From Streptomyces sp. NBC_01142 (GTDB lineage: Bacteria > Actinomycetota > Actinomycetes > Streptomycetales > Streptomycetaceae): a stretch of DNA of 64,000 nt. Below, in pieces: positions 32,087 to 45,087 of the stretch (position 1 is its first letter; each line of letters opens with the position of its first letter). The stretch is taken from positions 62,001-126,000 of the forward strand of contig NZ_JAPEOR010000003.1 in NCBI RefSeq assembly GCF_026341125.1. The letters are read 5' to 3'. A model generated the notes under the pieces. The model made no database searches. It had not been told where the DNA came from and saw nothing but the letters and a program-made list of their open reading frames with translations. Both the position numbers and the translations under genes were made by a program.

Positions 32087-32333
32087 CCGGGCGCGCGACG
32101 CCCTGTACAGCGCCATGACGAACGGGGACGGGTCGCCCGCCTCGGCTCGCCGGGCCTCCCAGGGCGCGGCGATGCTCGCCGACACCCTCGCCGACAACGG
32201 GCACTCCGGCGCCGCTCTCGCCGCATCGCTAGCAGGGGCCGCGGTCGTGGCTGCCGAAGGCGCCCTCTCCAACTACGTCTATCCGCCCGGCGACTACTCC
32301 GGATTCGATGATCAGAAAGGGGGCCGACGATGA
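32073..32333 (+). CDS. Small hypothetical protein with Ala-rich helix
   Basis: 86 residues with an Ala-rich, weakly hydrophobic stretch (SGAALAASLAGAAVVAAEGAL). It could associate with the membrane. It overlaps the HNH gene by 14 nt and the following Spd-like gene by 4 nt (ATGA). No family recognised. Confidence 0.6.
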   Translation: MGLRDRARDALYSAMTNGDGSPASARRASQGAAMLADTLADNGHSGAALAASLAGAAVVAAEGALSNYVYPPGDYSGFDDQKGGRR

Positions 32334-32860
32334 GCGCCAGCGAACCGCAGGCCCGTTTGACCCGAGGGCAGAAGGTCGTCCTGGTCGCCGCCACCGCCCC
32401 CATGATCGGGGCTGGTGTCGCCGGCGGGTGGGGCACGTACACCAACATCGTGACCGAGTTTGGCCGGGCGGCTACCGCGCTCGGTGTGGTCGCGGCCGGC
32501 GAGGGCGTGACTCTGGTCCTGGCGCTGGTCATGGTCGGGCTGACGATGCTGGGCCAGTCGGCCCCGACGCCGGTGCGGGCCGGTCTGTGGCTGGCTCCGA
32601 TCGCCGCTGCGCTGACCGGCATCGTGGTCGCCGACAGCGGTACCGAGGCTGTTGTCTACGGCATGACGCCGATGGCAATGTCTGCCTCGGCTGAAGGTAT
32701 CGGCCTGCTGGCCCGCCGGATCGTGGTGCACCGCACGGGGATGGACATGGAGGTGCAGCGGCGGAATGCCGATACGGTGCAGCGGCTGGCGTATCACCGT
32801 GCCCGTGCGGCGAACCATCCGAGCGAGCGGGCCCGTAAGCGGTCGCTGCGCGCGTCGTGA
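32330..32860 (+). CDS. Spd-like conjugal transfer membrane protein, 5' part of interrupted gene
   Basis: 176 residues up to a TGA. About four hydrophobic helices lie in residues 15-130 (VVLVAATAPMIGAGVAGGW, ALGVVAAGEGVTLVLALVMV, LWLAPIAAALTGIVVAD), followed by a basic cytosolic tail. This matches the conjugal-transfer/spread proteins found beside traB in Streptomyces elements, which help DNA move between hyphal compartments. Related proteins continue through the position of the stop, where Trp (TGG) is expected; the reading frame resumes directly after it. Confidence 0.7.
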   Translation: MSASEPQARLTRGQKVVLVAATAPMIGAGVAGGWGTYTNIVTEFGRAATALGVVAAGEGVTLVLALVMVGLTMLGQSAPTPVRAGLWLAPIAAALTGIVVADSGTEAVVYGMTPMAMSASAEGIGLLARRIVVHRTGMDMEVQRRNADTVQRLAYHRARAANHPSERARKRSLRAS

Positions 32861-33391
32861 CGGCTGGCCGCACGCGTCGGTGAGGGTGATGCGGAGCTGG
32901 GCGCGCACCTGGTGCAGGTGCAGCGCGAGCGGCTCCGTGAGGGCGCTGACGCAGCTCTGGCGGACATGCTCAGCGTCGGCACCCCGCAGCCTGCCGTCGA
33001 GACGGTCATCGAGCGTGTCGAGGTGTCCGTGGACACCCTGCCCGAGGTGACCGACACCGCGCTCGAGGAGCCGGTGCCCGCGATTGCTGCGGCGCCCGTG
33101 AAGCGGCTGGTCATCTGCGGTGACCGCAAGGTGTGGCCCGCCGTGGTCCCCGCGCTCGACGACGACGAGGAGGTGTCCGACGAACCAGCGGATCGGTTGC
33201 CGACCGAAGCGGCGGCGAATGTCATCCGGGCGTGCTGGGTGATGGGCACCTCAGTTGCCGACACGGCCCGTCAGTCCACCCGCAGCACCTCGTATGTGAA
33301 GAAGGTGTTCGCCCGCCTCGACGAGCAGCGCGAGGCGGAGCCTCCCAAGCAGCAGTGGCCGGCGCTCGTGTGGCCGGAGGTGGCGTCATGA
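32861..33391 (+). pseudogene. 3' part of interrupted Spd-like gene
   Basis: Same frame as the preceding ORF, directly after the TGA at 32858-32860. The continuation RLAARVGEGDAELGAHLVQV then QRERLREGADAALADM is the conserved cytosolic region of these proteins, and the C-terminus carries an HTH-like segment (VADTARQSTRSTSYVKKVF). It could be expressed separately from GTG 32912 or 32918, or by readthrough. Otherwise the gene is inactivated by one G-to-A change. Confidence 0.65.
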
Positions 33392-33690
33392 GCGATCTGG
33401 AGAAGGCTGCCAAGGATGCGGTCGAAGCGGCCAGCAACTCGGAGCACCTGGCGTTCATCAAGGCGGTACTGCAGGCACAGCAGCTCACCCAGCAGCAGGC
33501 AGCCCCGCCGGCGCCCGTACAGCAGTCGTCGGGCAGTGCCGGGAAGTGGATCGGCATCGGGGTGGGCGGATCCGTCTTCCTGCTCACCGTCGCCGTGTCC
33601 GCCGTAGCCGTCGCGATCTCCGCGGTGGCTCTGACCATCTGTGTCCTCGTCCTGCGCTCCATGTGGCGCGACTTCCAGAAGGGCCGCTGA
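33388..33690 (+). CDS. Small Spd-like membrane protein
   Basis: 100 residues. A soluble helical N-terminus is followed by a Gln/Pro/Ser linker and one long hydrophobic region (about residues 52-88: WIGIGVGGSVFLLTVAVSA, VAISAVALTICVLVL) that could form two helices. The ATG overlaps the preceding stop (ATGA). Size, topology and position beside traB fit plasmid spread proteins; specific function unknown. Confidence 0.65.
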   Translation: MSDLEKAAKDAVEAASNSEHLAFIKAVLQAQQLTQQQAAPPAPVQQSSGSAGKWIGIGVGGSVFLLTVAVSAVAVAISAVALTICVLVLRSMWRDFQKGR

Positions 33691-33771
33691 CGGTCCCTCC
33701 GTCCTCCACGGCCTGCCCGTGGGGGTGCGGAGGGGCCGGACAGCCCAGCCCCACAACGACAGGAGACCGTC

Positions 33772-34089
33772 ATGTCCAAGAAGAGCCAGCAGGACGCCGC
33801 CGCCTGGGTCGTCGACGCCACAGCGAAGCTGAAGGCCAGCCCGGCCCCGGACGCGTGGACCGTCGCCAATGCCGACCTGGCCAAGACCGCCGCGCGGACC
33901 GCCGGCACGACCCCCGCCCAGATCGCCGACGCCGCACGCAACGAGCAGGACCTCACCCTCGACGACTACTACGCAGAGGCCGTCCGCAACCTCCGGCACA
34001 TCGAGGCGCTGCTCCGGGACATCGACGAGCACGCCCCCGCCGGCACCCCGAGCCGCCTCGACCAGGTCCGCGGCGGCTCCAATGGCTGA
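33772..34089 (+). CDS. Element-encoded hypothetical protein
   Basis: 105 residues, helical and soluble (DAAAWVVDATAKLKASPAPD, LTLDDYYAEAVRNLRHIEALLRDID). GGAG lies 8 nt upstream of the ATG. An 81-bp leader separates it from the spread-protein gene. The end overlaps the next gene by 8 nt. No family recognised. Confidence 0.65.
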   Translation: MSKKSQQDAAAWVVDATAKLKASPAPDAWTVANADLAKTAARTAGTTPAQIADAARNEQDLTLDDYYAEAVRNLRHIEALLRDIDEHAPAGTPSRLDQVRGGSNG

Positions 34090-34276
34090 GCCGAAGCTCA
34101 CCGCCGGCGAGAAGACCAAGGTTGCCTGGCTCGTCGCACGGATGGCCAAGCGCGGGCTCGCCGCGAGCAACTCCCCCACCGGCGACGTCTACCAGGGCGA
34201 CCTACAGCGCAAGGTCGAACGCGTCCTCGAGGGCGCCCGCAAGCGCGAGGAACGCGAAGCCAAAGCCAGGAAGTAG
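34082..34276 (+). CDS. Small basic hypothetical protein
   Basis: 64 residues, highly basic at the C-terminus (KREEREAKARK), predicted helical. It overlaps the preceding gene by 8 nt and lies 87 bp before traB. Possibly nucleic-acid binding by charge alone. Confidence 0.6.
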   Translation: MAEPKLTAGEKTKVAWLVARMAKRGLAASNSPTGDVYQGDLQRKVERVLEGARKREEREAKARK

Positions 34277-34282
34277 CTACGC

Positions 34283-34327
34283 CCCGGGGCGGCCGTACAC
34301 CGGCCAAGGAAGTCCGGCCGCCCCGGG
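34283..34327 (+). promoter_or_regulatory. Large hairpin in the traB leader
   Basis: Perfect 13-bp inverted repeat CCCGGGGCGGCCG / CGGCCGCCCCGGG with a 19-nt loop, ending 37 bp before the traB ATG. There is no T-run. It may attenuate or stabilise the transcript and so control TraB dose. Confidence 0.6.
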
Positions 34328-34363
34328 CCACCCGCCACTCAGCAGAGAGCAGGAGAGACCAGC

Positions 34364-36532
34364 ATGACGGAAACCCTGGCGGGCCCGGTCAACGGGCACG
34401 CAGTGACGAAGCTGAACCTGTTGAAGCCTGCCGAGGAAGCCCCCGCGGCCCCGGCACCGGTCGTGCCCGAGGTTGTCGAGGCGGTCGACCGCCCTGACAA
34501 CCCGTTGGCGGACTGGCTGACCGTGCCGGACGCGCCCGTTCTCCCCGCATGGGCCCGCTCGAAGGCATCCATCCTGGCGAACGTCCAGGCGTTCGGCCGG
34601 CTTACCTGGTGGCACACCCGCTACCACGGGCTCCGTGCCCCCAAGTACCTGGTGAAGACGGTCCTTTTGGCTGCACGCGGGTTCTACCGGGCGACGGTTG
34701 GCATGTGGCCCACCCTGTCCGCGCAGGACCACACGGCGGCCATCCGGGCGCTGCGGGCACAGTGCAAGGCCCGACCCGAGGACGTAGAGCTGGGAGTGCG
34801 GCTGCAGCTGGCGCACGCCGCCCGTACCGAGACCCGCCGTTGGCGGTTCGGGGCCGCGGCCGTGGGTGTCGCCGCGGCTGCGACCGGCCTCATGCTGGCC
34901 GACCCGCTGCTGCAGACCGGTATGACAACGGCCATGGTGACCCCGCTGGCGTACCTGGGGCGCGGCAAGGAGACGCACCTGCTCGACCATGGCGTGCCGC
35001 CGATCAAGGTGGACATGTCTGCGCAGCAGCTCAACGACGCGTTGCGCGCCGCCGGCCTCCTGAAAAGCGGCAAGGGCGACGAGGACGGTCCGCGGGTGTC
35101 TTGCGTCATGGGCCCGGTACGTGACGGCCGCGGCTGGGCGGTGATCTTCGACATGCCCCGAGGAGGCGGTAAGACCGCATCCGACGTGCTCGCGAAGCGG
35201 GAAGTCATCGCGCAGGAGCTCGGCGTAGACGAGATCCAGGTCATCGCGTCCCGCGTGCGTGCGGCCAAGGGTGGCAACGCCGGCCGCGTGTCGATGTGGG
35301 TTGCGGACGATGACCCCTACCTGGCGGAGCCGACCCCGTCGCCGCTGGCCAAGCTGGAGCGGTTCTCCATCTGGGAGCCGGTGCCGTTCGGGCAGGATGC
35401 GCGCGGCAACCGCATCGCCGTACCGGTCGTGTGGCAGTCGATGTTTTTCGGTGGCCTGCCCCGCAGGGGCAAGACGTTCACACAGCGACTGATGACGGCG
35501 GCGGGCCTGCTCGACCCGTGGGTGCGGCACTACGTGGCCGACTTCAAGGGCGGGCAGGACTGGATGGGGATGCGGCACGTCGCGCACCGCCTGGTCCTCG
35601 GTGCCGAGGATGACGCGATCGCCGCGTTCATCGCGATGCTGAAGGAACTGCTGGCCGAGATGGAGCGCCGGTTCACCCTGCTCCGGGGCCTGCCGACGTC
35701 CATCTGCCCCGAGGGGAAGCTCACCCCGGCCATCATCGAGAAGTACAAGCTGCCGTTCATCTTCATCACGGTCGACGAGCTGCAGGAATGCTTCCTCGCC
35801 GTCGACGACAAGGTGCGCGAGGAGATCGTCGACGACCTCGGGCGCCTCGCTCGCCGCGGGCCGGCCGCCGGGTTCATCAGCAACTATGCGAGCCAGCGCC
35901 CGGACGCCAAGAGCGTGCCGACCAAGCTGCGGGAGATCATCACCATCCGCTGCTGCACCCAGGTCACGGACAAGACGAGCAGCGACATGGTCCTCGGCTC
36001 GGGCAAGGCCGCCATGGGCGCCGACGCCTCGCTGCTGTCCGAGGACCACAAGGGCGTGACCGTGCTGGTGACCGGGCCGGCGTCGCACGCCACGGTGAAG
36101 AACGACCTGCTCACCACGGCCGAGTTCAACGCCCTGTGCCTCAAGGGGCGGGCCCTGCGCGAGCCTCTGGGACAGATCACCGGGGATGCGTCCGGGGACG
36201 TCGCGGCAGCTGCCGGACTGGCCGGCCTCACCATCGACCCCGTGCTGTCCGACGCGCTCGACGTGATGCGGCACTCGGACCGGATGCACTCCGTCGACCT
36301 GCTCGCCCGCCTGGTCAACGCCGACGAGGACCGGTACGGGGACTGGGATCTCGACAAGCTTGCCGCGGAGCTGGACAGCGCCGGGGTCAAGCGGACCACG
36401 AAGCAGATCAACATCAAGGGCAAGAATCTTGCCGGGTACCGGCGGGCCGATCTGGAGGCGGCCGTGCCCGAGGAACTGCTCCTCGCCGCGCGGGCGGTAG
36501 AGCCCCCTCCCTCTACCGAGACCCCCAACTAG
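34364..36532 (+). CDS. traB: TraB-type FtsK/SpoIIIE DNA translocase for conjugation
   Basis: 722 residues. Hydrophobic helices at about residues 165-205 anchor it in the membrane. The motor domain carries Walker A FGGLPRRGKT at about 362-370 and Walker B PFIFITVDELQ at about 464-474. The C-terminus (about 610-700) resembles the winged helix by which TraB proteins recognise repeats in the clt locus. A hexamer moves double-stranded element DNA into the recipient. AGGAGAG lies upstream of the ATG. Repeats clustered at its 3' end are candidate recognition sites. Confidence 0.92.
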   Translation: MTETLAGPVNGHAVTKLNLLKPAEEAPAAPAPVVPEVVEAVDRPDNPLADWLTVPDAPVLPAWARSKASILANVQAFGRLTWWHTRYHGLRAPKYLVKTVLLAARGFYRATVGMWPTLSAQDHTAAIRALRAQCKARPEDVELGVRLQLAHAARTETRRWRFGAAAVGVAAAATGLMLADPLLQTGMTTAMVTPLAYLGRGKETHLLDHGVPPIKVDMSAQQLNDALRAAGLLKSGKGDEDGPRVSCVMGPVRDGRGWAVIFDMPRGGGKTASDVLAKREVIAQELGVDEIQVIASRVRAAKGGNAGRVSMWVADDDPYLAEPTPSPLAKLERFSIWEPVPFGQDARGNRIAVPVVWQSMFFGGLPRRGKTFTQRLMTAAGLLDPWVRHYVADFKGGQDWMGMRHVAHRLVLGAEDDAIAAFIAMLKELLAEMERRFTLLRGLPTSICPEGKLTPAIIEKYKLPFIFITVDELQECFLAVDDKVREEIVDDLGRLARRGPAAGFISNYASQRPDAKSVPTKLREIITIRCCTQVTDKTSSDMVLGSGKAAMGADASLLSEDHKGVTVLVTGPASHATVKNDLLTTAEFNALCLKGRALREPLGQITGDASGDVAAAAGLAGLTIDPVLSDALDVMRHSDRMHSVDLLARLVNADEDRYGDWDLDKLAAELDSAGVKRTTKQINIKGKNLAGYRRADLEAAVPEELLLAARAVEPPPSTETPN

Positions 36533-36756
36533 GCCCGCACGGACGGGTCCGATGGGGGCCCGGAAGTAGCGGGAGCCCTCTACGGCGGTAGATCCCCCCT
36601 GTAGAGGGGCCTGACCTGCGAAGTAGAGGCCCGTAGAGGGGTCTGAGCCCTACGCCCGGATCCCTCCCGTGGGCCCGATCCTGTAGCCCCCGCCCATTCC
36701 GGCGTGGGCATCACCACGCATGGATAAGCACCCGCGACGCCGGCGCCCGGTAGAGG
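36497..36756. repeat. GTAGAGG repeat cluster, candidate clt transfer locus
   Basis: GTAGAG(G) occurs directly at 36497, 36601, 36623, 36633 and 36750 and inverted at 36511-36516 and 36578-36583, with near-matches at 36566 and 36588. The cluster starts in the last codons of traB and fills the 281-bp gap before the convergent XRE gene, which holds no gene. In Streptomyces plasmids, TraB-recognised octamer repeats lie in the same place. Confidence 0.55.
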
Positions 36757-36813
36757 CGGCCGGACAGCAGCGCCCCCTCTCACCTTCGGGTGGCAGGGGG
36801 CGCATTCGTGCGT

Positions 36814-37554
36814 TCAGGACCAGACGGGGCGCCCGGTCTCCCACAGTGCCGTCACGTGGGACGCGAACCGGTCGTACAGGCCATCCTCGCCGAGGCGCCG
36901 CAGGTGCAGCATCGGCGACTCGTGCCCGAGCAGGTTCGAGATATGGGGCGTCACCAGCATCTGATCGTCGAACGCGAAGACGCTGAGGGCAATGTGCTCG
37001 TCGCTATACCGGGCCTGCAGGCCGGGCGCCTCCCGGATCTTCTCCAGTGCATCCAGGGTGATGCGGATACGGGTGCTCACCGTGAGCGGCACGCCCTCGA
37101 TCTCCTCGCGGCGCCGCGTCACTTCCGACTCGGGATCGCCGACGATAAAACGCACCTGGCAGCCGTCCTCGCCCTTACGCCGCAGGCGGTCGCCGAGACG
37201 CGAGTGTTCCTGCCAAATGAAGTAGTTGGTGTAGCCGGCGAAGGTGATGGACTGCGATGCGCCGTCTATCAGGGAGGCCCACACCGAGGTTGGGCAGGCG
37301 TTGCGGTAGGGGTACGCCGCCACGATCTCGCGGTCCGGCCCCGTTTTCACGGCCGACCGCACGGCCTTCGGCCACAGCACCTCTGCGCTCACTCCCAACG
37401 CGACCTGTACGTCAGCGCGGGTCCGTGGATGGGGGACCCGTGACGGATCGGATAACCACCGTTCGGCCGTCTTAACCGTCACGCCGACTGTACGAGCGAG
37501 TCGGCCGACAGTCATGTTTGCACCGGCCATAGCATCGCGCAGGACTGTGTTCAA
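36814..37554 (-). CDS. XRE-family regulator with PLD-like C-terminal domain
   Basis: 246 residues. The N-terminal HTH (MTVGRLARTVGVTVKTAERW, about residues 14-33) is followed from about residue 75 by a domain resembling phospholipase-D-like regulators (TFAGYTNYFIWQE, CQVRFIVGDPESEVTRRR). Such proteins are widespread in Streptomyces, often next to peptide or methyltransferase genes. It is divergent from the peptide/PIMT cassette across 108 bp containing symmetric half-sites, so it probably controls that cassette. Confidence 0.75.
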   Translation of the reverse strand: MNTVLRDAMAGANMTVGRLARTVGVTVKTAERWLSDPSRVPHPRTRADVQVALGVSAEVLWPKAVRSAVKTGPDREIVAAYPYRNACPTSVWASLIDGASQSITFAGYTNYFIWQEHSRLGDRLRRKGEDGCQVRFIVGDPESEVTRRREEIEGVPLTVSTRIRITLDALEKIREAPGLQARYSDEHIALSVFAFDDQMLVTPHISNLLGHESPMLHLRRLGEDGLYDRFASHVTALWETGRPVWS

Positions 37555-37566
37555 GGAGTCCCCCGA

Positions 37567-37638
37567 GGACGTTTCGGCTTTCTAGGACGATAGCGCCGAA
37601 GCGGCCCAGCCGTCTGTGCCGCGTCCGTAGAAACGTCC
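37567..37638. promoter_or_regulatory. Separated inverted half-sites between XRE gene and peptide cassette
   Basis: GGACGTTTC at 37567-37575 and its exact complement GAAACGTCC at 37630-37638 flank the divergent promoters. A second pair TTCGGC/GCCGAA lies at 37573-37578 and 37595-37600. Looping or paired binding by the XRE-PLD protein is possible. Confidence 0.4.
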
Positions 37639-37662
37639 CAACGGGTGCACCACCTTTGGGGT

Positions 37663-37851
37663 ATGACGGACAGGCAGGCAGTCGAGAAGTCACCCGCCAG
37701 GGAGACGCTCAGAGATCTGATGGCATCGCGCGACGGCATCGCGCTCGGTGAACCGGAGAGCGCAGCGATCGAGCTCCCCGAAGGGGGGAGCATCCCTCCC
37801 GGCTCGATGATGTACCCGCCGTGCCGGTGCCCGCGCTGCCGCCAGTCGTGA
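37663..37851 (+). CDS. Small peptide, Cys-containing C-terminus
   Basis: 62 residues. A charged leader-like N-terminal part (ARETLRDLMASRDGIALGEP) is followed by a Gly/Pro/Met-rich tail ending PPCRCPRCRQS, with three cysteines in CxCxxC. The tail could be a zinc-binding or modified core region. It opens a compact rightward operon with a second small peptide and a PIMT-type methyltransferase, which makes a precursor or accessory-peptide role plausible. The in-frame start at 37645 is less likely. No family recognised. Confidence 0.55.
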   Translation: MTDRQAVEKSPARETLRDLMASRDGIALGEPESAAIELPEGGSIPPGSMMYPPCRCPRCRQS

Positions 37852-37904
37852 GACGGCAGTACCGCCTGATCGTCGTCAGCTCGCCCGACATCGAATTGGA
37901 GTGA
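37848..37904 (+). other. Micro-ORF bridging two peptide genes
   Basis: An 18-codon ORF whose GTG overlaps the stop of the 62-residue gene (GTGA) and which ends 5 nt before the ATG at 37910. It may serve translational coupling rather than encode a functional product. Confidence 0.3.
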
Positions 37905-37909
37905 GGCTC

Positions 37910-38056
37910 ATGACCACGGCCCAGCCCAACCACACCCCGGCCGAAGCGGCCGACGACGGCAAGCACGGCGGCAAGCCCGCGCCGATCAAGCCGTGGACCC
38001 CTCCGCCCACGCCGCCCTCCCCGGACGGCAGCGGCGGCCGATACATCGGCGGCTGA
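37910..38056 (+). CDS. Candidate RiPP precursor peptide
   Basis: 48 residues, too short for routine gene calling. It is rich in Pro, Gly and Lys and contains two Asp-Gly pairs (ADDGKHGG and SPDGSGGRYIGG). Asp-Gly is the classical site at which PIMT-type methyltransferases trigger aspartimide formation. GGAGTGAGG precedes the ATG, and the stop lies 1 nt before the GTG of the methyltransferase gene, so the two are made together. The precursor role is inferred from context. Confidence 0.55.
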   Translation: MTTAQPNHTPAEAADDGKHGGKPAPIKPWTPPPTPPSPDGSGGRYIGG

Positions 38057-38057
38057 C

Positions 38058-39158
38058 GTGGACACCGCACAGATGCAGGGATACGCCGACCTCGTCCAAG
38101 GCTTGGCAGGCCGCGGGCTCCTCGACGACCGGTGGCGCCAGGTGTTCACCGCCGTGCCCCGCGACCTGTTCATCCCCGAGCACATCTGGCGCCAGGCCCC
38201 CGAGGCGTGCGAGCCCATCACCTCGCACGCCGCCTGGCTAGAGCTGGTGCACAGTGACGAGCCGGTCGTCATCCAGATCGACGACGGCGCCGAGGGGGGG
38301 CCCGGTGTGGCCACCTCGTCCAACAGCCAGCCGTCCATGGTGGCGAAGATGCTCGGCCACCTGCAGATCGAGGACGGGCATCGCGTCCTCGAGATCGGCA
38401 CAGCATCCGGGTATGTCGCTGCGCTGCTGACTGAGCGGCTCGGCGAGCAGAACGTGTACAGCGTCGAACTGGACCCCGCCCTGGCAGAGCTTGCGGCGAG
38501 CAACCTGCACGCCGCCGGCTACATGCCGCAGCTGCGGTGCGGGGACGGCGAGGAAGGGTGGCCAGGCGTGCCGCCCTTCGACCGACTCATCGCTACGTGC
38601 GCTCTGCGGCACATCCCGCGGGGCTTCGTCGAGCAGGTCCGGCCGGGTGGCGTCATCGTCTCGCCGATCGCCCGCGACTTCTGGAGCGGCGCCCTGGTCC
38701 AGCTCACTGTCCAGGGGGACGGCATTGCGTCGGGCCCGTTCCGTGGCGGAGCGTCGTACATGCCGATGCGCTCGCACCGTCTGGGCGCCGGGGCGCCGGT
38801 CGACTCGTCGACTGCCCGCTCTCGGAAGGGTGGGCCGGATCCGGCGGGGATGCTGACCCTCGGGTTCGCGCTGTACGCCGGGGCCCGCCTGCCCGGTGTG
38901 TCGATGTGGCACAGCGAGAAGCCCGGTCACGTTCAGGTGTGGGCCAGCCGCCGGGACGGTTCGGCAGCGACCGCAGCCACGGGCGAGGACGTCTGGCAGT
39001 ACGGCGCCGGGAACCTGTGGGAGGAGATCGAGCAGGTGTTCTTGGAGTACGCCGCGCTCGACTCGCCCGACGCCGAAGAGTTCGGCCTGACCGTGGACGC
39101 GGACGGTCAGCACGTGTGGCTGCGTGAGCCACGCACCAGGGTCCAGCCCGCCGCATAG
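38058..39158 (+). CDS. PIMT-type (L-isoaspartyl) O-methyltransferase, RiPP-associated type
   Basis: 366 residues. The PIMT fold spans about residues 25-220: the TSSNSQPSMVAKML segment corresponds to the family's substrate-recognition S/T loop, and VLEIGTASGYVAALL is the SAM-binding motif I. A C-terminal extension of about 140 residues goes beyond the roughly 210-residue housekeeping enzyme, as in PIMT homologues of RiPP clusters that methylate Asp and yield aspartimide. The GTG is 1 nt after the 48-residue peptide stop. A repair role cannot be ruled out. Confidence 0.75.
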   Translation: MDTAQMQGYADLVQGLAGRGLLDDRWRQVFTAVPRDLFIPEHIWRQAPEACEPITSHAAWLELVHSDEPVVIQIDDGAEGGPGVATSSNSQPSMVAKMLGHLQIEDGHRVLEIGTASGYVAALLTERLGEQNVYSVELDPALAELAASNLHAAGYMPQLRCGDGEEGWPGVPPFDRLIATCALRHIPRGFVEQVRPGGVIVSPIARDFWSGALVQLTVQGDGIASGPFRGGASYMPMRSHRLGAGAPVDSSTARSRKGGPDPAGMLTLGFALYAGARLPGVSMWHSEKPGHVQVWASRRDGSAATAATGEDVWQYGAGNLWEEIEQVFLEYAALDSPDAEEFGLTVDADGQHVWLREPRTRVQPAA

Positions 39159-39166
39159 AGAAAGCC

Positions 39167-39210
39167 AGCCCCGGTCTGTCTGCGTCCCCCGTCGCGGACA
39201 GGCCGGGGCT
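39167..39210 (+). terminator. Terminator after PIMT gene
   Basis: Long hairpin with AGCCCCGG / CCGGGGCT base and CTGTC / GACAG upper pairs, followed by TCGTC. It closes the peptide-PIMT operon. The remaining bases to 39356 show no gene. Confidence 0.7.
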
Positions 39211-39356
39211 TCGTCAGTCCCAGATGCCGTCTGGTCGACGTTCTCGGGCCCGGGGTGGAGCACACGCGCCGCCTGTGCGCCTGGGCATGACACTTCACTC
39301 CGTCACGAACTGGTTACAGCGGCACCCACGTTGTGTGCCTCTGTCACCATCCATGA

Positions 39357-39866
39357 ATGTCTGCCAACGAGGCCCCTGTGCCCGCAATGCCTGACCACAC
39401 CCCTGACCAGAAGCCGCAGCATCGGCGGCCTGCTTGGCTGTTGAGCGGCCTTGCTGGCGTCGCTGTCGGTGCGGGGATTGTGGGCGGCGTCTGGGCCGTC
39501 TCCGCGTCCACTTGGGGCGCAACCGATGCGTTCGAGCTGAAGGGCACCATGACCCTGGTCGGCGGCGGTAGCGAGATCGGTCGCCCCAGCACCGGGGGCT
39601 GCCGCGGCCTGGGCGGCTATTCGGACATCATTCCCGGGGCTGCGGTCACGGTCTACGACGCGGCCGGCAAGGTCGTGGCTACTGGCTCGCTGGGGGAGCC
39701 GAAGTACTCCGGCTCGGGATTCACCCTGGCGTGCGCGTTCCCTGTGTCGGTTCCGGATGTCCCGAAGGGGAGCAAGATCTACCAGGTCGAGGTGTCTCAC
39801 CGTGGCAAGATCTCCATCGGTTCCGATGAAGCGGAGCAGGGGAAGTTCGCCGCCTCGTTGAGTTGA
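39357..39866 (+). CDS. Membrane-anchored hypothetical protein
   Basis: 169 residues. One transmembrane helix near residues 26-48 (AWLLSGLAGVAVGAGIVGGVW) places the rest outside the cell. The exported part is beta-rich with two cysteines (GGCRGLGGY, LACAFPV) that could form a disulfide. Similar unannotated surface proteins are common in Streptomyces. Function unknown. The 284 bp after it hold a weak 58-codon ORF (39894-40070) and the promoter of the next gene. Confidence 0.65.
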   Translation: MSANEAPVPAMPDHTPDQKPQHRRPAWLLSGLAGVAVGAGIVGGVWAVSASTWGATDAFELKGTMTLVGGGSEIGRPSTGGCRGLGGYSDIIPGAAVTVYDAAGKVVATGSLGEPKYSGSGFTLACAFPVSVPDVPKGSKIYQVEVSHRGKISIGSDEAEQGKFAASLS

Positions 39867-40093
39867 GCTCATGGAGCCGCCGACGGCTACTACATGGTCG
39901 GCCGCCTGCCGGGTGTCCAGGTCGACCGTGACCTTGACGCTCTGCTTCTTGGTCTTGAGGCAAGCTATTGCCCGGTCGTAGGCAGCTTCGTCTGCGGTGA
40001 CCGGTGGGTCCGTTGTGCCCTGCCTGGGCTACCTGTGCGCCGACCCGCGCTAATCCTGGTTGGAGTGTAGATCCAAGGGCCCACCGCGACCAT

Positions 40094-40127
40094 TGATTCA
40101 AAGGTGATACTTGACTATGACCTTTGA
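40094..40127 (+). promoter_or_regulatory. Promoter/operator upstream of small XRE gene
   Basis: TTGATT (40094-40099) and TATGAC (40116-40121) with a 16-bp spacer form a plausible promoter. TCAAAGGT (40098-40105) and ACCTTTGA (40120-40127) are exact inverted arms bracketing it, suggesting autoregulation by the XRE protein encoded next. Confidence 0.5.
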
Positions 40128-40150
40128 TTCGTCACCCTTGGGGGGTTGTG

Positions 40151-40435
40151 GTGGTTGAGATCCGAGTGAGGCGCATGCCGTCGCCAGAGCTCGGCCCGAT
40201 GCTGCGGCAAGCGCGGGAGCTGGCGGGGCTAGGCCTGCGGGAGCTCGCCCGGCAGGCTGGCCTATCCCCTGGCTACCTGGCGCATCTCGAGGCCGGGGAG
40301 CGGTGCCCGTCCGTATCGGTAGCTCATTGCCTCGCGGGGCTGCTAGAGGTCGACGAAGTCGAAAGGGTCGTGCTGCTGGCTGCCGCGGTCAACGATGCGG
40401 GCCGCGACCACCCGCGCCGCACCGAGGCCGCCTGA
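40151..40435 (+). CDS. Small XRE-family regulator
   Basis: 94 residues consisting of one HTH_3 domain (LGPMLRQARELAGLGLRELARQAGLSPGYLAHLEAGERCPS) and a short helical tail. The start is uncertain: GTG 40148/40151 after a G-rich site, or TTG 40124. A promoter with symmetric arms lies just upstream. It may act as the immunity or control protein of this part of the element. Confidence 0.75.
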   Translation: MVEIRVRRMPSPELGPMLRQARELAGLGLRELARQAGLSPGYLAHLEAGERCPSVSVAHCLAGLLEVDEVERVVLLAAAVNDAGRDHPRRTEAA

Positions 40436-40542
40436 ATGCCATAGCAGGGGCCGGCAGTCCTGCGGCGAGGTTCACCCAAAGACTCCTCGCACCTGAGGCC
40501 AGCGCGTCACGCTGTCTCCCCACGAATCCTGAGGGGGACTTC

Positions 40543-40860
40543 ATGGCCAACCCGTACATCAATGCGCCGATCCGAGCCCGCATGTATGAGAGCAGCGCCC
40601 ACAAGGTGAAATGGGTGGTGGCCGTCGTGCTGTCGGCCGGACTGCTTGCACCGGCACTGTTCTTCATCGCGGCAAAGAAGGGCGTGATCAGCTTCGCTCC
40701 GGCAGCGATCTACGCGGGAATCATCTATCCCGTGGGCATGCTCGGGCAGCCACTGACTGGAAATCCCGGGAACTGGGTTGGCGGAGTCCTCGCCATCACA
40801 ATGATCGTCGCTGCCGTGCACGCCGCCATCCTCGACACCGACTGGAAGCCAGGCCGATAG
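40543..40860 (+). CDS. Small integral membrane protein
   Basis: 105 residues with about three hydrophobic helices (VVAVVLSAGLLAPALFFIAA, FAPAAIYAGIIYPVGML, WVGGVLAITMIVAAVHAAIL). GAGGGGG precedes the ATG by 8 nt. It follows the small XRE gene and is closed by a terminator. No family recognised. Confidence 0.65.
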   Translation: MANPYINAPIRARMYESSAHKVKWVVAVVLSAGLLAPALFFIAAKKGVISFAPAAIYAGIIYPVGMLGQPLTGNPGNWVGGVLAITMIVAAVHAAILDTDWKPGR

Positions 40861-40876
40861 TCGGCGCGCATGACGA

Positions 40877-40902
40877 AAGGGTCCGCATCAGTGCGGACCC
40901 TT
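40877..40902. terminator. Terminator between convergent genes
   Basis: Perfect 11-bp stem AAGGGTCCGCA / TGCGGACCCTT with a TCAG loop, between the membrane-protein gene and the leftward recombinase gene. Confidence 0.8.
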
Positions 40903-40938
40903 CGGCGACATACTTCCTTCAGGGAAGCCAGTTGAGGC

Positions 40939-41976
40939 TCACAGTCCCGTGACGGGGTTGTCCTCCCAAGGGTCGCCGGCCTCGTAGTACCGGGCGAGGG
41001 AAGTGGAGTTGTCCGCCCAGCCGCCTTGCCGCGCCGTGCGGAGCATCGTCGCCCCTCCCTGTACCGCCGCGGTCGCGAAACCCCGGCGCAGGGAGTGGCC
41101 GCGCCAACGCCCTTGCATGCCAGCCGCATCAGCCAGCCGCTCGATGACATCGGACGCTGCGTCGGGGGTGAGTCGGCCGGACGGGTCACCGATCGGCTTG
41201 CCGTGGCGCATCATCGGCGGGGCGATGCGGCCGTGTCGGTCGATGCGAACGAACAGCGGTCCGTCGGCACGGCCCGACTTGCGCAAGGCCGCGATCAGCG
41301 CGCGCACCGCGCGTACCGGGCAGGTCCCTGGGTTCTTGCCGTAGGGCACGGCCGTGTCCGTGAAGGCCTTCATCTTCACCCGGTAGATCTGGACCATGAA
41401 ACCTTCCTCGCACTCGACGAGGTCGCCAATGTCGAGGCCGACCAGCTCCGAGGACCGGGTCGCTCCCGCGTAGCCGAGGAGCATCATGGCGGCGTCTCGC
41501 TTCCCGATGAGCGTGTCCCGGTCGAGGGTGGCGAGCATCTGCCGTAGCGCGGTCGGCACGGCGGCCTTCGCCTGGCGCTGCCTGGCCCCGGGGCCTTTGT
41601 TCTCGGCGAGCCGGTGCTTGTAGCCGGCGAGGACGGTACGGGCGCCCTTCGTCTCAGGTCGGGGCTGGGCGAGTTCGGCATGCATGGTCGTGATGGCGGA
41701 CAGGGCCCGCTCGATGGAGCTCGGCGAGGCGGGCCGGCCGGTGCGGGGGCGCGGCGTCAGGGTCAGGTGCGTGGCGTACTCGACGAGGAGATCCTGCGTC
41801 GCGGGTACCGGCCGCTCTCCGCGGGCTGCGCACCAGGCGACAAACGCCTCGCGGTCCTGCCGGTAGGCGCGGCGCGTGGAGTCAGCGCGGCCAGCGGCGA
41901 GGGCGGCCTGCGCTTCCGGCGACAGCTGGCGTCGAACTGGCGCGGGTGCCGCTTCGTAGCGCTCGATGTCGGTCAT
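40939..41976 (-). CDS. Second tyrosine recombinase (XerC/D-like)
   Basis: 345 residues. A SAM-like core-binding domain occupies about residues 25-130 and the catalytic domain carries R (GYAGATRSSELVGL), K (VKMKAF), HxxR (HSLRRGF), a W in place of the second His (GGWADNSTSLARYY) and the Tyr in ARYYEAGDPW. The residues needed for activity appear present. It lies in the middle of the element, away from its borders, so it may belong to nested cargo or resolve multimers. GAGGGGGAG precedes the ATG; a 16-bp palindrome lies upstream. Confidence 0.85.
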   Translation of the reverse strand: MTDIERYEAAPAPVRRQLSPEAQAALAAGRADSTRRAYRQDREAFVAWCAARGERPVPATQDLLVEYATHLTLTPRPRTGRPASPSSIERALSAITTMHAELAQPRPETKGARTVLAGYKHRLAENKGPGARQRQAKAAVPTALRQMLATLDRDTLIGKRDAAMMLLGYAGATRSSELVGLDIGDLVECEEGFMVQIYRVKMKAFTDTAVPYGKNPGTCPVRAVRALIAALRKSGRADGPLFVRIDRHGRIAPPMMRHGKPIGDPSGRLTPDAASDVIERLADAAGMQGRWRGHSLRRGFATAAVQGGATMLRTARQGGWADNSTSLARYYEAGDPWEDNPVTGL

Positions 41977-42039
41977 GAACTCCCCCTCGATACAGTCGCG
42001 TTCTAACTCCAGAGAATAAAGATTATCAGGAGCCAGAGT

Positions 42040-42055
42040 GTTGCCCTAGGGCAAC
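42040..42055. promoter_or_regulatory. 16-bp palindrome upstream of second recombinase
   Basis: GTTGCCC-TA-GGGCAAC is a perfect palindrome about 65 bp upstream of the recombinase start, next to an AT-rich stretch containing GATAATC. It could be an operator or a recombinase site. Confidence 0.45.
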
Positions 42056-42132
42056 GGCCGGAATCCGGGCTGTCGGTGCCCGCGCGTACCGCTGAGGCGT
42101 CTTATCCGTGCTCACTGGCTGCTTGCACTGGT

Positions 42133-42180
42133 GCGCCGACGCCCCGCCCCCGAACAGCGCCAAGGGCGGGGCATCGGCGC
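42133..42180. terminator. Terminator after AlbA_2 gene
   Basis: Two-part stem GCGCCGA/TCGGCGC and GCCCCGCCC/GGGCGGGGC with one mismatch between, starting 6 bp past the stop of the leftward AlbA_2 gene. Confidence 0.65.
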
Positions 42181-42186
42181 GCAAGG

Positions 42187-43503
42187 TCAGATGAAGATGG
42201 ACTCGATGCCGAGCTGATTCAGAACGCCGGCGGAGAGCGACTGAGCACAGTCGCGAAGGGCCGCCGAATCCGGTGCCGGAGGCAGCTCGGAACCTGCGGG
42301 AAGGAGCTTTGTCGGGCACCGGGCGCCCGAGGGCACGTCCATGAACCCGTTTCTCTCGAGGACTGGCGCGAACCCGGCGAAGGGCTGACTGCCGCGTCTA
42401 TGAGCTTCCGGATTGCAGGTGACCACAGCGGTGAGGTCGGTACTGCTGTCGATGCGGCGGGCCATCCTGAACTCGTGCGCCAGGGCCACCGCTTCGCACA
42501 CGCCGACCTGCACAACCAGGGATTCCACCGGAAGATATGGCGCGACATTCGGAGTATTCGGTCCGGCGTTCTTAGCGAGCACGAAACTGGATACGTCAAC
42601 GGCGTACACGACCGTCCCGTCGTGGTGCAGCTCCACCATCAGCAACCGACCCTTTGGGAGCGGCCCCTTGAACGGATGCAGGAAGTTGCCCTCAACCCAC
42701 CGTTGTAGACCGACCTGAGGGTTTCCGACGAGGGTGCTACGCATCAGCCCCGGAGTACGGAATTCCCCCTGTATGTCGGCTGCGGTTCTGAGCGCGGCAC
42801 TCAAGACGTCATTTGCTTCGTGCCGGGCAGGGGACGGCACGAGCGGGGGGATGGGCCGTGCAGGCCGCGATACGACGATCAGCCATGCGACCGACGGGTC
42901 GCCGGTCAGGACCACCTCGCGGGCGTGCTCAAGATGCCGCTCCAGGGCCTCGTCGGCTGCGGCCTGCCGGGCGTAGCGGTCCCGGTAGGCCCGGTCGATC
43001 TCGTGTTCGGCGAGCCACCCCGTGTGGTCTGAGTACCGGAAGGGAACAGCGAAGGCCTGCAGTTGCCTGTCCCGCTGCGAGCTCCCCAGCACAAAGTGGG
43101 GCGCCATGGCGCTCGCGGGCACGTCGACCACAAGGACGGTCTTGCTGCCGTCAGCCGACGATTGCGTGTACGCGTCGACGCCGGCCACGTAGGGCTGGGT
43201 GTTGGCTCGCAGCCACTTGTGCAGGTGTTCGGTGTTGACCGCCTGGGGGTCAACACCTGTGATGGTGCGGTCGTTGCGAACGCCATAGATCAGCAGGCCG
43301 CCGCGGGCGTTTGCCATCGCGGCGACGTCTTTCGCAAACTCGTTCCATTCGCCGGGTTCAGCCTTCTTCGGAAGGTCGCGCTTCCAGTCGAGATCATCCC
43401 GCTCCCCGTCGATGTCGGCTGCGGCTTGCGCGACCAGTTCGTAGGTGAGAGGGCCGGGCGGAACGCCGAGTTCCTGGTGAATGCGGGTCCATGTGCTGGC
43501 CAT
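42187..43503 (-). CDS. AlbA_2 (Schlafen-like) domain protein
   Basis: 438 residues. The N-terminal region (about 30-170) matches the AlbA_2 domain: DLDWKRDLPK, then FAKDVAAMANARGGLLIYGV, a putative nucleic-acid- or ATP-binding fold related to Schlafen proteins. The C-terminal 250 residues are not recognised. AlbA_2 proteins occur as regulators and in phage-defence loci, so an accessory or defence role in this element is possible. The ATG at 43503 is chosen; starts at 43568 or 43620 would add N-terminal residues of doubtful coding character. Confidence 0.75.
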   Translation of the reverse strand: MASTWTRIHQELGVPPGPLTYELVAQAAADIDGERDDLDWKRDLPKKAEPGEWNEFAKDVAAMANARGGLLIYGVRNDRTITGVDPQAVNTEHLHKWLRANTQPYVAGVDAYTQSSADGSKTVLVVDVPASAMAPHFVLGSSQRDRQLQAFAVPFRYSDHTGWLAEHEIDRAYRDRYARQAAADEALERHLEHAREVVLTGDPSVAWLIVVSRPARPIPPLVPSPARHEANDVLSAALRTAADIQGEFRTPGLMRSTLVGNPQVGLQRWVEGNFLHPFKGPLPKGRLLMVELHHDGTVVYAVDVSSFVLAKNAGPNTPNVAPYLPVESLVVQVGVCEAVALAHEFRMARRIDSSTDLTAVVTCNPEAHRRGSQPFAGFAPVLERNGFMDVPSGARCPTKLLPAGSELPPAPDSAALRDCAQSLSAGVLNQLGIESIFI

Positions 43504-43667
43504 CGCGCCAGCATAGGAGCGCACCTCTGGCCGCGTCTCGGCATTTCCCTGTCCGCCAAATCGTGCCATACGGGTGCCATCAGGCCACCTAACCCGCAGG
43601 TCAGGGGCAGGAAAACGCATCCCCTATGCGGTTAGACCCCTTGGGTTGCGGACGGCGATCAATGCCC

Positions 43668-43907
43668 CTAGCGCTTGACCGCGGTGCCGTAGGCCAGGAA
43701 CGTCCATCCGAAGCCCCTGTCGCTCTCCGACTGCGACATGGCGATCCGAAGGCCAACGATGGCGTCGGCCCCTTCCGAGGCCGCCCGCTCCTCGAGTGCC
43801 GACACGGCGTGTTCGTCACTGACTTGGTCCCGTGCGGAAACGAGCCACGCCTTACGGATAGGGGGACTGCTGGAGACGGGGATCGCATCGGTTGTGTACA
43901 GGTCCAT
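43668..43907 (-). CDS. YbjQ/DUF74-like small protein
   Basis: 79 residues. SALEERAASEGADAIVGLRI followed by a beta strand and FLAYGTAVKR resembles the heavy-metal-binding YbjQ (DUF74) fold, although the N-terminal half is shorter than usual. GAGG lies just before the ATG. Its role is unknown. The 143 bp upstream of it hold no convincing gene. Confidence 0.5.
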   Translation of the reverse strand: MDLYTTDAIPVSSSPPIRKAWLVSARDQVSDEHAVSALEERAASEGADAIVGLRIAMSQSESDRGFGWTFLAYGTAVKR

Positions 43908-44050
43908 AGCCTCAGCTTCGAGCAGGGCCCGAGGTGCAGCGAGTGCAGTTGGGCCGTATGAGCAGCCCCGGCAGATGGGGTATCCATTCGGTACACCCGT
44001 ACATGGCTGCGCCCGGCCGTCGTGGTGACCAGCCGGGCGCTCGAGATGGT

Positions 44051-44296
44051 TCAGGCCGCGTCGTCCGGCCCCTCGTCTTCGTCCTGCGGCTGATAGTGCC
44101 GTGCGAACCAATCCGCGGTACTCACCCCCGGCGGCCTGCGCTCCGGCTCCGCACGGCGCTCCCGCATACGGGCCAGGTGCTGCTCACTCGAGGACACGCT
44201 CGGCAGCACGATCAGCTCAGGGATCTCCTCGCCCCGGGCGCGTGCCGCCAACTTCTCCGCGGCTGTAGCCGGCCGGGTCTTCTGCTCGCTGCTCAT
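44051..44296 (-). CDS. Hypothetical protein, acidic C-terminus
   Basis: 81 residues, hydrophilic, ending in an Asp/Glu tail (QPQDEDEGPDDAA). The start overlaps the stop of the upstream gene (ATGA). Part of a leftward operon of phage-like small genes. Confidence 0.6.
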   Translation of the reverse strand: MSSEQKTRPATAAEKLAARARGEEIPELIVLPSVSSSEQHLARMRERRAEPERRPPGVSTADWFARHYQPQDEDEGPDDAA

Positions 44297-44652
44297 ACGA
44301 TTCCTCCGTTGATGATCTCGGCCTCTTCGACTGCGACTCGGGCCTTGGCTTCGGCGAGCAGCTGCTGAGCCTCGCGCCGCCGCTCCTGCCGCTCCTCGGG
44401 CGACAGCGCTTCGTGGATGTCGGTGGTGAGCGGGTCGGCCAGCTCGGGAAAGTCAACGGGCTTGCGAGCCTTGATCCGTGCGGCGCGAATCATCTGCTGC
44501 AGTTCCCTGTCCTGGTCGAGCAGCGGCAGCGGCCAGGCTGCGCCCAGTTGGCAGGCCTGGCCGTGGTACCGGCACTCGGGCTGCTCCGGCCCGAGGATGG
44601 TGACCTGCTCGGCGAGCCGGTCGAGGCGGGCTCGGATGCTGCGTCCCTTCAT
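44293..44652 (-). CDS. Hypothetical protein with long charged helix
   Basis: 119 residues. A cysteine pair (ECRYHGQAC) lies near residue 27, and a charged C-terminal helix (SPEERQERRREAQQLLAEAK) suggests a coiled coil. Start and stop overlap both neighbours by 4 nt. No family recognised. Confidence 0.6.
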   Translation of the reverse strand: MKGRSIRARLDRLAEQVTILGPEQPECRYHGQACQLGAAWPLPLLDQDRELQQMIRAARIKARKPVDFPELADPLTTDIHEALSPEERQERRREAQQLLAEAKARVAVEEAEIINGGIV

Positions 44653-45023: not shown

Positions 45024-45053
45024 CGGCGGTCGTCCCCTCGTGGTCGCGGCGAG

Positions 45054-45080: not shown

Positions 45081-45087
45081 GGGGTGG

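What the first reader, a model, noticed from the sequence alone, without database searches (positions are those of the whole stretch)
37663..39158. Possible imiditide-type RiPP cassette carried by the AICE
Two small peptides (62 and 48 residues) precede a 366-residue PIMT homologue with a C-terminal extension. The 48-residue peptide has two Asp-Gly pairs, the preferred site of PIMT-driven aspartimide formation, and its stop is 1 nt from the methyltransferase start. Imiditides are known RiPPs made from only a precursor and a PIMT homologue. No ATP-grasp, lanthipeptide or graspetide enzyme is nearby. A divergent XRE-PLD regulator completes a compact cassette.
Basis: partly seen in the sequence, partly recalled or inferred. 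Interest (0 to 1): 0.82.

Follow-up and report, generated by a model that had tools for sequence, protein, structure and literature searches.

The report
Mobile pamtide (imiditide) peptide cassette
A Streptomyces mobile element carries a tiny gene pair, a short peptide and the enzyme expected to turn one of its aspartates into a reactive ring, which belongs to a known peptide class, and related pairs ride on Streptomyces phages and plasmids behind interchangeable regulators.

Summary
In detail: a 48-aa peptide (37910-38056) lies 1 nt before a 366-aa PIMT homologue with a C-terminal extension (38058-39158). By sequence it is a type I pamtide (= imiditide). In 53 of 54 unique loci with the same core (GKHxGxP..KPW..PPSPDG) the methyltransferase starts -4 to +12 nt from the peptide stop. 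Only the second Asp-Gly, D39-G40, is conserved, so D39 is the predicted site; the core is under strong purifying selection. Corrections: the 62-aa ORF belongs to another small-protein family, not a second precursor; the enzyme lacks the published WxxxGxP motif; the precursor is near neutral. The cassette sits in a 22-kb integrated element (about 29129-51252), uninterrupted in four relatives checked. In four related phages three different XRE regulators occupy the same place before a nearly constant peptide-enzyme pair; each type has its match among regulators at the bacterial loci, and the window's XRE-PLD regulator has one homologue in the phage collection, beside such a cassette. No modification or biological function was tested and no structure could be run; whether this precursor family is already in the published pamtide list is not known.

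The parts
37910..38056 (+). 48-aa type I pamtide/imiditide precursor (MTTAQPNHTPAEAADDGKHGGKPAPIKPWTPPPTPPSPDGSGGRYIGG)
   Evidence: core found in 54 unique loci, alignment A3 of 46 rows, dN/dS 0.10-0.14
38024..38026 (+). codon of D39 of the precursor, predicted site of methylation / aspartimide / isoAsp formation (followed by G40)
   Evidence: D39-G40 in all 46 rows of A3 (partly by selection) and in 3 variants not selected by that pattern, L074, L159, L161; the modification itself is inferred
38058..39158 (+). 366-aa PAMT-type PIMT homologue with C-terminal extension, predicted to act on the precursor
37663..37851 (+). 62-aa Cys-containing small protein (C-term YPPCRCPRCRQS); member of a small-protein family often near XRE-like regulators, not a second precursor
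36814..37554 (-). divergent XRE-type regulator with DUF5919/PLD-like domain
   Evidence: homologue divergent to a pamtide-like cassette in phage Alderaan
37567..37638 (.). inverted repeat GGACGTTTC (37567-37575) / GAAACGTCC (37630-37638) in the divergent promoter region: possible operator
   Evidence: 49 of 2000 shuffles reach 9 bp, 14 of 500; no such pair at 29 fetched XRE-PLD homologue loci nor in the Alderaan and G004 intergenic regions; weak
29129..51252 (.). integrated element (about 22.1 kb, ends good to some 25 nt) between purB and a GDSL gene, carrying the cassette
   Evidence: homologous site uninterrupted in 4 of 4 relatives compared
34364..36532 (+). FtsK/SpoIIIE (TraB-like) translocase of the element
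46559..47866 (-). replication protein of the element (AAA_25; primase/polymerase family match)
49988..51175 (+). tyrosine integrase at the element's right end

Best explanation
A compact type I pamtide (imiditide) cassette carried as cargo by an AICE-like element. Shown by sequence: one conserved precursor, directly followed by a PAMT-type methyltransferase, next to an XRE-family regulator, on an integrated element. Inferred mechanism: the divergent XRE-PLD regulator controls the operon; precursor and enzyme are made by coupled translation; the PAMT recognises the conserved GKHxGxP..KPW..PP region, transfers a methyl group from SAM to the side chain of D39, and the ester closes on the backbone nitrogen of G40 to an aspartimide (-18 Da), which hydrolyses largely to isoAsp. 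No cyclase was seen, and no downstream gene recurs in more than 5 of 54 loci, so there is no dedicated exporter, protease or immunity gene that I can point to; the product probably acts inside the cell or leaves by host machinery. Because cassettes of this kind ride on phages, plasmids and an AICE behind exchangeable regulators while the core hardly changes, the product most likely acts on a conserved cellular target for the benefit of the carrier; which target is not known.
For: Adjacency: PIMT start -4 to +12 nt from the precursor stop in 53 of 54 unique loci; all 29 other loci fetched by the peptide alone have a PIMT homologue downstream. Core invariant at H19, G21, P28, W29, P31, P36, P38, D39, G40 in 46 rows; dN/dS 0.100 for the core against 0.224 for the PAMT over 13 independent pairs. 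Composition and length fit the published type I description (about 45 aa, rich in Gly, Pro, Asp; PMC10787088 section 2.3): 24.1% P, 13.3% G, 9.0% D, median 41.5 aa over 52 precursors; acidic residue within 4 before KH in 50 of 54, basic residue after PDG in 47 of 54. C-terminal extension: whole-length matches to TIGR04188 and phrog_13505 (306 bits, residues 5-364). XRE: HTH_31 in 34 of 53 nearest upstream genes of >=200 aa against 3 of 52 downstream, Fisher p 1.2e-10; one of four regulator clusters lies upstream at 40 of 54 loci. Element. Mobile carriage: phages, plasmid, predicted proviruses.
Against: No mass or activity data. The PAMT scores below the TIGR04188 cut-off. It lacks the WxxxGxP motif reported for lasso, graspetide and imiditide PIMTs (window YAALDSP; motif in 5 of 49 peptide-linked PAMTs; the Trp place is Tyr in 41, Trp in 7, Phe in 1 of 49; W->A abolished TceM but not LihM). 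The precursor is near neutral (pI 6.7; family median 6.1), while the review speaks of strong positive charge in imiditides. The reactivity of D39 and the order of events rest on analogy. A direct link between regulator and operon is untested, and the possible operator is weak. The conservation figures are biased upwards: many loci were found with the peptide as query, and my pattern demanded [KR]PW, a following DG and [KR]HxG; 5 of 66 loci examined did not fit it.
Confidence: 0.78

Rival explanations
1. The PIMT homologue is a protein-repair enzyme (isoAsp repair) recruited by the element, and the 48-aa ORF is a neighbouring gene of another role.
For: PCMT domain with a glycine-rich SAM-type motif VLEIGTASGY (motif known from recall; letters); solved housekeeping PIMTs align over the catalytic domain; the tree does not place E. 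coli Pcm outside.
Against: The peptide is directly joined to the enzyme at 53 of 54 loci and its core evolves more slowly than the enzyme; the enzyme has the extra C-terminal part and scores far higher on TIGR04188 than on housekeeping models.
Confidence: 0.07
2. The peptide is a substrate but not a secreted natural product: the modified peptide is an intracellular ligand or partner of the adjacent XRE regulator, i.e. a signalling switch rather than a toxin or antibiotic.
For: XRE regulators are enriched upstream (34 of 53 against 3 of 52); no downstream gene recurs in more than 5 of 54 loci; the core is almost invariant.
Against: Three unrelated sensor types (long C-terminal TPR-like, DUF5753, DUF5919/PLD) would all have to bind the same peptide; exchange of regulators beside a constant peptide is more natural if the regulator only controls transcription. 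No binding data.
Confidence: 0.2
3. The cassette gives the carrier a competitive or exclusion trait (inhibiting or excluding rival phages, plasmids or strains), with the aspartimide as electrophilic warhead.
For: Carried beside lysis genes in phages and in the provirus L225, on a plasmid and on this element, places usual for accessory genes.
Against: Strong purifying selection on the peptide is not what an arms race predicts; no candidate immunity gene recurs; PADLOC found for the PAMT only a partial match, mad2 over residues 90-204, and none for the XRE-PLD.
Confidence: 0.25
4. The real substrate is the 62-aa peptide, or both peptides.
For: It lies in the same apparent operon and ends in a Cys-rich motif.
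Against: Its family has matches in 43 of 199 genomes, and of 14 fetched homologue loci (1.5 kb on each side) only L208 has a PIMT homologue alongside; it has one Asp-Gly, which is not in the shared C-terminal part.
Confidence: 0.03

Closest known systems
Type I pamtides / imiditides (SpaA-SpaM of Streptomyces sparsogenes; NmaA-NmaM of Nonomuraea maritima)
   Same: Two-gene unit of a short Gly/Pro/Asp-rich precursor and a PAMT with C-terminal domain; conserved Asp next to Pro/Gly; acidic residues towards the N- and basic towards the C-terminus; no other class-defining enzyme recognised (PMC10787088 sections 2.2, 2.3, 2.5 and PMC13001092 passages and two sections).
   Different: WxxxGxP motif absent in 44 of 49 peptide-linked PAMTs including the window's; near-neutral precursor; Gly after the site where NmaA has His; recurring XRE partner and carriage on mobile elements, which neither main text mentions (0 hits for XRE, phage, plasmid in either). 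The SpaA and NmaA sequences were not in the text I could read, so sequence identity to them is untested.
Group 13 graspetide methyltransferases (TIGR04188 'ATP-grasp peptide maturase system methyltransferase'; SsfM, AmdM)
   Same: Whole-length homology of the methyltransferase.
   Different: No ATP-grasp gene recognised here; the enzyme must act on a linear peptide.
Type II pamtides / cysimiditides
   Same: Two-gene PAMT unit.
   Different: Their precursors carry a CxxCxGxG zinc ribbon; this precursor has no cysteine.
Pamtide-like cassette of Austintatiousvirus phages (PapayaSalad, Austintatious, Alderaan, Ididsumtinwong)
   Same: Divergent XRE regulator, small ORFs, GKHGG...SSDGSGP precursor, whole-length PAMT (36-37% identical); Alderaan has a homologue of the window's own XRE-PLD regulator.
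   Different: Gly-rich precursor without KPW; on a phage rather than an AICE; annotated in the records only as hypothetical protein and (O-)methyltransferase.

Membership tests
Type I pamtide / imiditide | Short precursor (about 45 aa) rich in Gly, Pro, Asp, directly beside a PAMT gene | tested here: met
   48 aa, 22.9% P, 16.7% G, 6.2% D; 1 nt from the PAMT; 52 precursors together 24.1% P, 13.3% G, 9.0% D
[quoted passage not shown]
   P38-D39-G40 in 46 of 46 rows (partly by selection), and PDG in variants L074, L159, L161 and L003, L014, L019
Type I pamtide / imiditide | PIMT homologue with C-terminal domain like that of RiPP-associated PIMTs | tested here: met
   match to TIGR04188 over profile 1-363 of 363, though below its cut-off.
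Type I pamtide / imiditide | No other class-defining RiPP enzyme in the cluster | tested here: met
   nine neighbours from 34364 to 43620 scanned
Type I pamtide / imiditide | Conserved WxxxGxP motif near the C-terminus of the PIMT | tested here: not met
   window YAALDSP; motif in 5 of 49 peptide-linked PAMTs. The review reports it as shared by lasso, graspetide and imiditide PIMTs, not as class-defining
Type I pamtide / imiditide | Asp converted to methyl ester, aspartimide, isoAsp on a linear peptide | not testable with these tools
   needs co-expression and mass spectrometry
Type II pamtide / cysimiditide | Zinc-ribbon CxxCxGxG...CxxCxGxG precursor | tested here: not met
   no Cys in the 48-aa peptide
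Graspetide group 13 | ATP-grasp ligase beside the PIMT | tested here: not met
   none among the nine neighbours scanned
AICE | Integrase, FtsK/TraB-type translocase and replication protein on an integrated element | tested here: met
   integrase, FtsK, AAA/primase family matches; site uninterrupted in 4 of 4 relatives compared. Transfer untested; ARAGORN found no tRNA in the window

The most novel reading that the evidence does not exclude
Pamtides of this kind are not mainly chromosomal secondary metabolites but a shared accessory module of Streptomyces mobile elements: a nearly invariant modified peptide plus PAMT, placed behind exchangeable XRE regulators (with TPR-like, DUF5753 or DUF5919/PLD sensor parts) much as phage immunity regions are exchanged, so that phages, AICEs and plasmids deliver the same peptide effect on a conserved host target under different triggers.
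Probability: 0.3. Interest if true: 0.75.

Novelty: new member of a known kind. Interest (0 to 1): 0.52.

Why it matters
The 2026 review of aspartimide RiPPs calls connecting them to biological function the bigger challenge (PMC13001092, conclusion). This cassette gives a handle: the peptide core is under stronger selection than its enzyme, an XRE regulator recurs beside it, and a natural series of closely related phages of the laboratory host S. venezuelae differs far more in the regulator in front of the cassette than in the cassette itself. Function can be tested in lysogens and in deletion strains without knowing a target beforehand.

Tried and rejected
Considered and dropped: housekeeping repair enzyme; the 62-aa ORF as second precursor; both Asp-Gly pairs as sites (D is present at position 16 in 20 of 45); a spread of the KPW precursor beyond the genus. 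On the last: in the class scan of 394 genomes the matches at E<1e-6 are in 5 genomes, all of the window's genus; the best match outside it (L160, E 1.9e-5) has no PIMT beside it. A looser relative without KPW (GKHGAPP...NPDG before a PIMT, L003) does occur in another family.

Led nowhere: predicted structure of the PAMT (not completed); long direct repeats at the element's ends (of 27 families the 20 largest shown); an operator shared by XRE-PLD homologues; text search for the peptide motif (0 papers). The imiditide discovery paper is not held and supplementary files could not be read, so whether this precursor family is already in the published list of 1,414 type I pamtides is not known.

Results against the reading: E. 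coli Pcm is placed inside the peptide-linked rows by a 2.84-long branch, so the tree cannot root the family. The KPW rows are not one clade there: 5 of 49 lie apart (one side of a branch in 2% of 200 bootstrap trees; one origin not strictly excluded), so peptide and enzyme do not simply share one history. 5 of 54 loci have PAMT frames under 340 aa (L069, L091, L102, L111, L123) and were dropped from tree, pairwise and dN/dS work. For A3 I gave 46 of the 52 precursors with an assigned start, leaving out L114, L116, L119, L121, L123 and L124. The XRE link is not universal: 19 of 53 upstream neighbours do not match HTH_31, and single members are a P450, a glycosyl hydrolase and a transposition protein. 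For that count I put the window's regulator in by hand, because my gene caller had shortened it below 200 aa and the next gene was FtsK. The cluster counts are single-linkage within 6.5 kb, and 3 of the DUF5753-cluster loci have a member downstream. purB and the GDSL gene lie within 400 bp of each other in 16 of the 24 other genomes of the genus searched; in 7 there are 0.9 to 10 kb between them and in 1 they are on different contigs.
Full report
WHAT IS THERE. The coordinates of the finding are right. On the + strand lie a 62-aa ORF (37663-37851), a 48-aa ORF (37910-38056) and a 366-aa ORF starting with GTG (38058-39158), one nucleotide after the stop of the 48-aa ORF. A regulator gene is divergent at 36814-37554. 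The 366-aa protein has the PCMT domain and matches TIGR04188, the methyltransferase of ATP-grasp peptide systems, over the whole profile, but with 301 bits against a cut-off of 380; the best housekeeping model has 125.6 bits. It also matches the phage family phrog_13505 over residues 5-364 with 306 bits.

THE PEPTIDE IS REAL AND BELONGS TO THE ENZYME. A search of 392 genomes of the window's genus (named relatives are Streptomyces) with the 48-aa peptide alone gave 31 genomes, our own included, with a match at E <= 1e-4 (my count from the listing). Thirty loci were fetched; each of the 29 besides our own has a PIMT homologue just downstream. Together with 25 loci found by the enzyme in named genomes and wider stretches, 66 loci were examined; 61 fit the motif pattern and 5 did not; 54 remained after removing duplicates. 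In 53 of these 54 the methyltransferase starts between -4 and +12 nt from the peptide stop; at L111 the distance is 229 nt. One of the five misses, L074, has a variant precursor (GKHGSGPSDTPWEPPPEPPSPDG) in the same place; L081 and L084 have incomplete enzyme matches and no such precursor; L122 and L085 were not resolved.

THE SITE. In an alignment of 46 precursors H19, G21, P28, W29, P31, P36, P38, D39 and G40 never vary. Some of this is by selection, since the pattern asked for [KR]HxG, [KR]PW and a DG. But variants found without it keep PDG: L074, L159 and L161 and the more distant precursors of L003, L014 and L019. The first Asp-Gly of the window peptide is not conserved: D is at that place in 20 of 45. 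So D39 is the predicted site. Over 13 independent pairs of close relatives dN/dS is 0.100 for the core and 0.224 for the PAMT; over all 87 non-independent pairs 0.136 and 0.209. The core stays at a median of 72.7% identity even among pairs whose PAMTs are 25-35% identical (141 pairs; biased, because those loci were found by the peptide).

WHAT CLASS. Lee et al. (PMC10787088; outline, text up to part of section 2.1, and sections 2.2, 2.3 and 2.5 read) describe type I pamtides as a two-gene unit of a roughly 45-aa precursor rich in Gly, Pro and Asp and a PIMT homologue with C-terminal domain, 'PAMT'. Zhu and Link (PMC13001092; passages, imiditide section and conclusion read) state that imiditides and type I pamtides are the same class. 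The window unit fits in length, composition, acid/base ends, enzyme type and absence of another recognised class enzyme. It differs in three ways: the WxxxGxP motif is YAALDSP here and present in only 5 of 49 peptide-linked PAMTs, against 5 of 9 graspetide-linked, 5 of 6 GNKHG-type and 4 of 8 others (the Trp place is Tyr in 41, Trp in 7 and Phe in 1 of the 49, and Trp in 19 of the 23 others); the precursor is near neutral (pI 6.7); and the residue after the site is Gly, not His as in NmaA. I could not read the sequences of SpaA or NmaA, nor the supplementary list of 1,414 clusters, so I cannot say that this family is unpublished.

THE 62-aa ORF. It has matches in 43 of 199 genomes (E <= 0.01). 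Among 14 fetched loci (1.5 kb on each side) a PIMT homologue is present at one, L208; at the nine loci whose ORFs I listed, proteins that look like XRE regulators by eye stand beside L206, L207, L208, L210 and L211. Small ORFs with a similar C-terminus (PPCxCPxC, often beginning MTIKVY) lie upstream of a number of the peptide cassettes. It is therefore better read as a companion of the regulator than as a second precursor.

THE REGULATOR. Taking the nearest upstream gene of at least 200 aa within 4 kb at 53 loci (for the window the regulator itself put in by hand), 34 match HTH_31 and 32 HTH_3; for the nearest downstream gene the figures are 3 and 4 of 52 (Fisher p 1.2e-10 and 7.6e-9). The window's own member matched only DUF5919 in that scan. 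By clustering within 6.5 kb the regulators fall into a family of about 400 aa with a long C-terminal part (upstream at 19 loci; Pfam TPR matches weak and below cut-off), an XRE-DUF5753 family (upstream at 10), and two more (7 and 6); 40 of 54 loci have one of the four upstream. The commonest downstream cluster occurs at 5 of 54 loci. A 2026 graspetide paper notes DUF397-DUF5753 pairs beside group 11 and 13 graspetide clusters (PMC13097080, passages), so the XRE link has a published parallel.

MOBILE CARRIAGE. The window cassette lies in an insertion from about 29129 to 51252 between purB and a GDSL gene. The two genes are within 400 bp of each other in 16 of 24 other genomes of the genus searched, and four of four junctions compared in detail are uninterrupted. 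The element has an integrase at its right end, an FtsK-type protein and a replication protein, as expected of an AICE. None of its other proteins matches within 6.5 kb of the other 53 cassettes, so those are not copies of this element. A linear plasmid of S. anulatus carries an XRE-DUF5753 regulator, DUF6879, an MTIKVY ORF, the KPW precursor and the PAMT close together. Among 50,697 phage records 10 match the PAMT; 8 are Streptomyces phage records with whole-length matches at 36-37% identity, of one genus in the four whose taxonomy I saw. Each of these four has a 47- to 70-aa ORF ending in GKHGGG...SSDGSGP(S/A)K(K), 8 nt before the PAMT. In IMG/VR 120 stretches encode relatives and the best 80 were kept; of the 55 best loci inspected, four (L225, L227 with TPW, L228, L229) have this precursor type, and many others have Gly-rich precursors or an ATP-grasp ORF before the PAMT. 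L225 lies in a predicted provirus after an endolysin, a minor-tail match and a regulator of phage family phrog_5823; L227 and L228 have an integrase nearby and a regulator with XRE-type HTH upstream. IMG/VR proviruses are predictions.

EXCHANGE OF REGULATORS. Among PapayaSalad, Austintatious, Alderaan and Ididsumtinwong the PAMTs are 88-98% and the precursor ends 94-100% identical, and two further small ORFs 79-93%, while the divergent regulator at the same place is of three kinds without significant similarity to each other (best E 0.2): a 407-aa XRE protein with a long C-terminal part (PapayaSalad), an XRE-DUF5753 protein (Austintatious and Ididsumtinwong, 98% identical to each other) and an XRE-DUF5919/PLD protein (Alderaan). 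Searched against all proteins called around the 54 bacterial cassettes, the first hits only the 400-aa family (15 hits), the second only the DUF5753 family (13 and 11 hits) and the third only the window's own regulator. So the same three kinds recur in both settings. The window XRE-PLD has one match in the phage collection, and it is the Alderaan gene (53.8-55% identical). Of 29 fetched XRE-PLD homologue loci (1.5 kb flanks) that is the only one beside a PIMT homologue, and XRE-PLD homologues occur in 129 of 199 genomes, so the regulator has other uses too.

IN PRINT OR NOT. Searches for 'imiditide' (5 papers, 4 listed) and 'pamtide' (2 papers) and word searches inside the two main papers gave no mention of phage, plasmid, mobile elements or XRE regulators; the other papers that hold 'imiditide' were not opened. 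The Alderaan genome paper (passages) and two further Streptomyces phage papers (word search) do not hold the word methyltransferase. A wider search on prophage, RiPP and Streptomyces phage listed 10 of 68 papers, none of which looked relevant from the listing beyond those two. The main imiditide paper is not held, so this is a limited statement.

VERDICT. Biochemical class: very likely a type I pamtide/imiditide (0.78). Function: open. What lifts the interest above that of one more member is the mobile setting and the exchange of regulators around a constant peptide, seen in sequences of named phages.

Noticed in passing
L220 3810-5149, L221 2744-4149, L222 2747-4149, L223 2813-4149: Austintatiousvirus phages carry a type I pamtide-like precursor (annotated as hypothetical protein) and a whole-length PAMT between the lysis genes and the regulator.
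   Followed up: partly
L240 and L271 (IMG/VR): ORFs 17 nt before a PAMT resemble the zinc-ribbon precursor of type II pamtides (two CxxCxGxG-like motifs) in predicted viral contigs.
   Followed up: no
L237, L245-L252, L254 and others (IMG/VR): Predicted viral contigs have an ORF that looks ATP-grasp-like by eye directly before the PAMT, i.e. graspetide-type pairs.
   Followed up: no
window 40939-41976 (-): A second tyrosine recombinase inside the element, shortly after the cassette; the element may be composite.
   Followed up: no
window 42187-43620 (-): Schlafen AlbA_2-domain protein next to the second recombinase; no PADLOC match.
   Followed up: partly
L063, L065, L069, L071, L076, L080, L091, L096 (and L081): In these loci the cassette or its remnant lies within the same stretch as a tRNA-His gene, in several of them beside an oligoribonuclease-like gene: an apparent integration hotspot.
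   Followed up: partly
window 37567-37638: Inverted repeat GGACGTTTC/GAAACGTCC in the divergent promoter region of regulator and cassette.
   Followed up: partly
G324:C1 103937-104047 and 8808332-8808442: Two precursor matches with the same score on opposite strands near the two ends of a chromosome, probably terminal inverted repeats.
   Followed up: no
G234, G371, G090, G202: Some genomes carry two or more separate copies of the peptide-PAMT pair.
   Followed up: no
L193 and L016 (G004:C3, 37,780 bp): Contig of phage-genome size with XRE-PLD and a GKHGG-type cassette; possibly a related prophage or phage-plasmid.
   Followed up: partly
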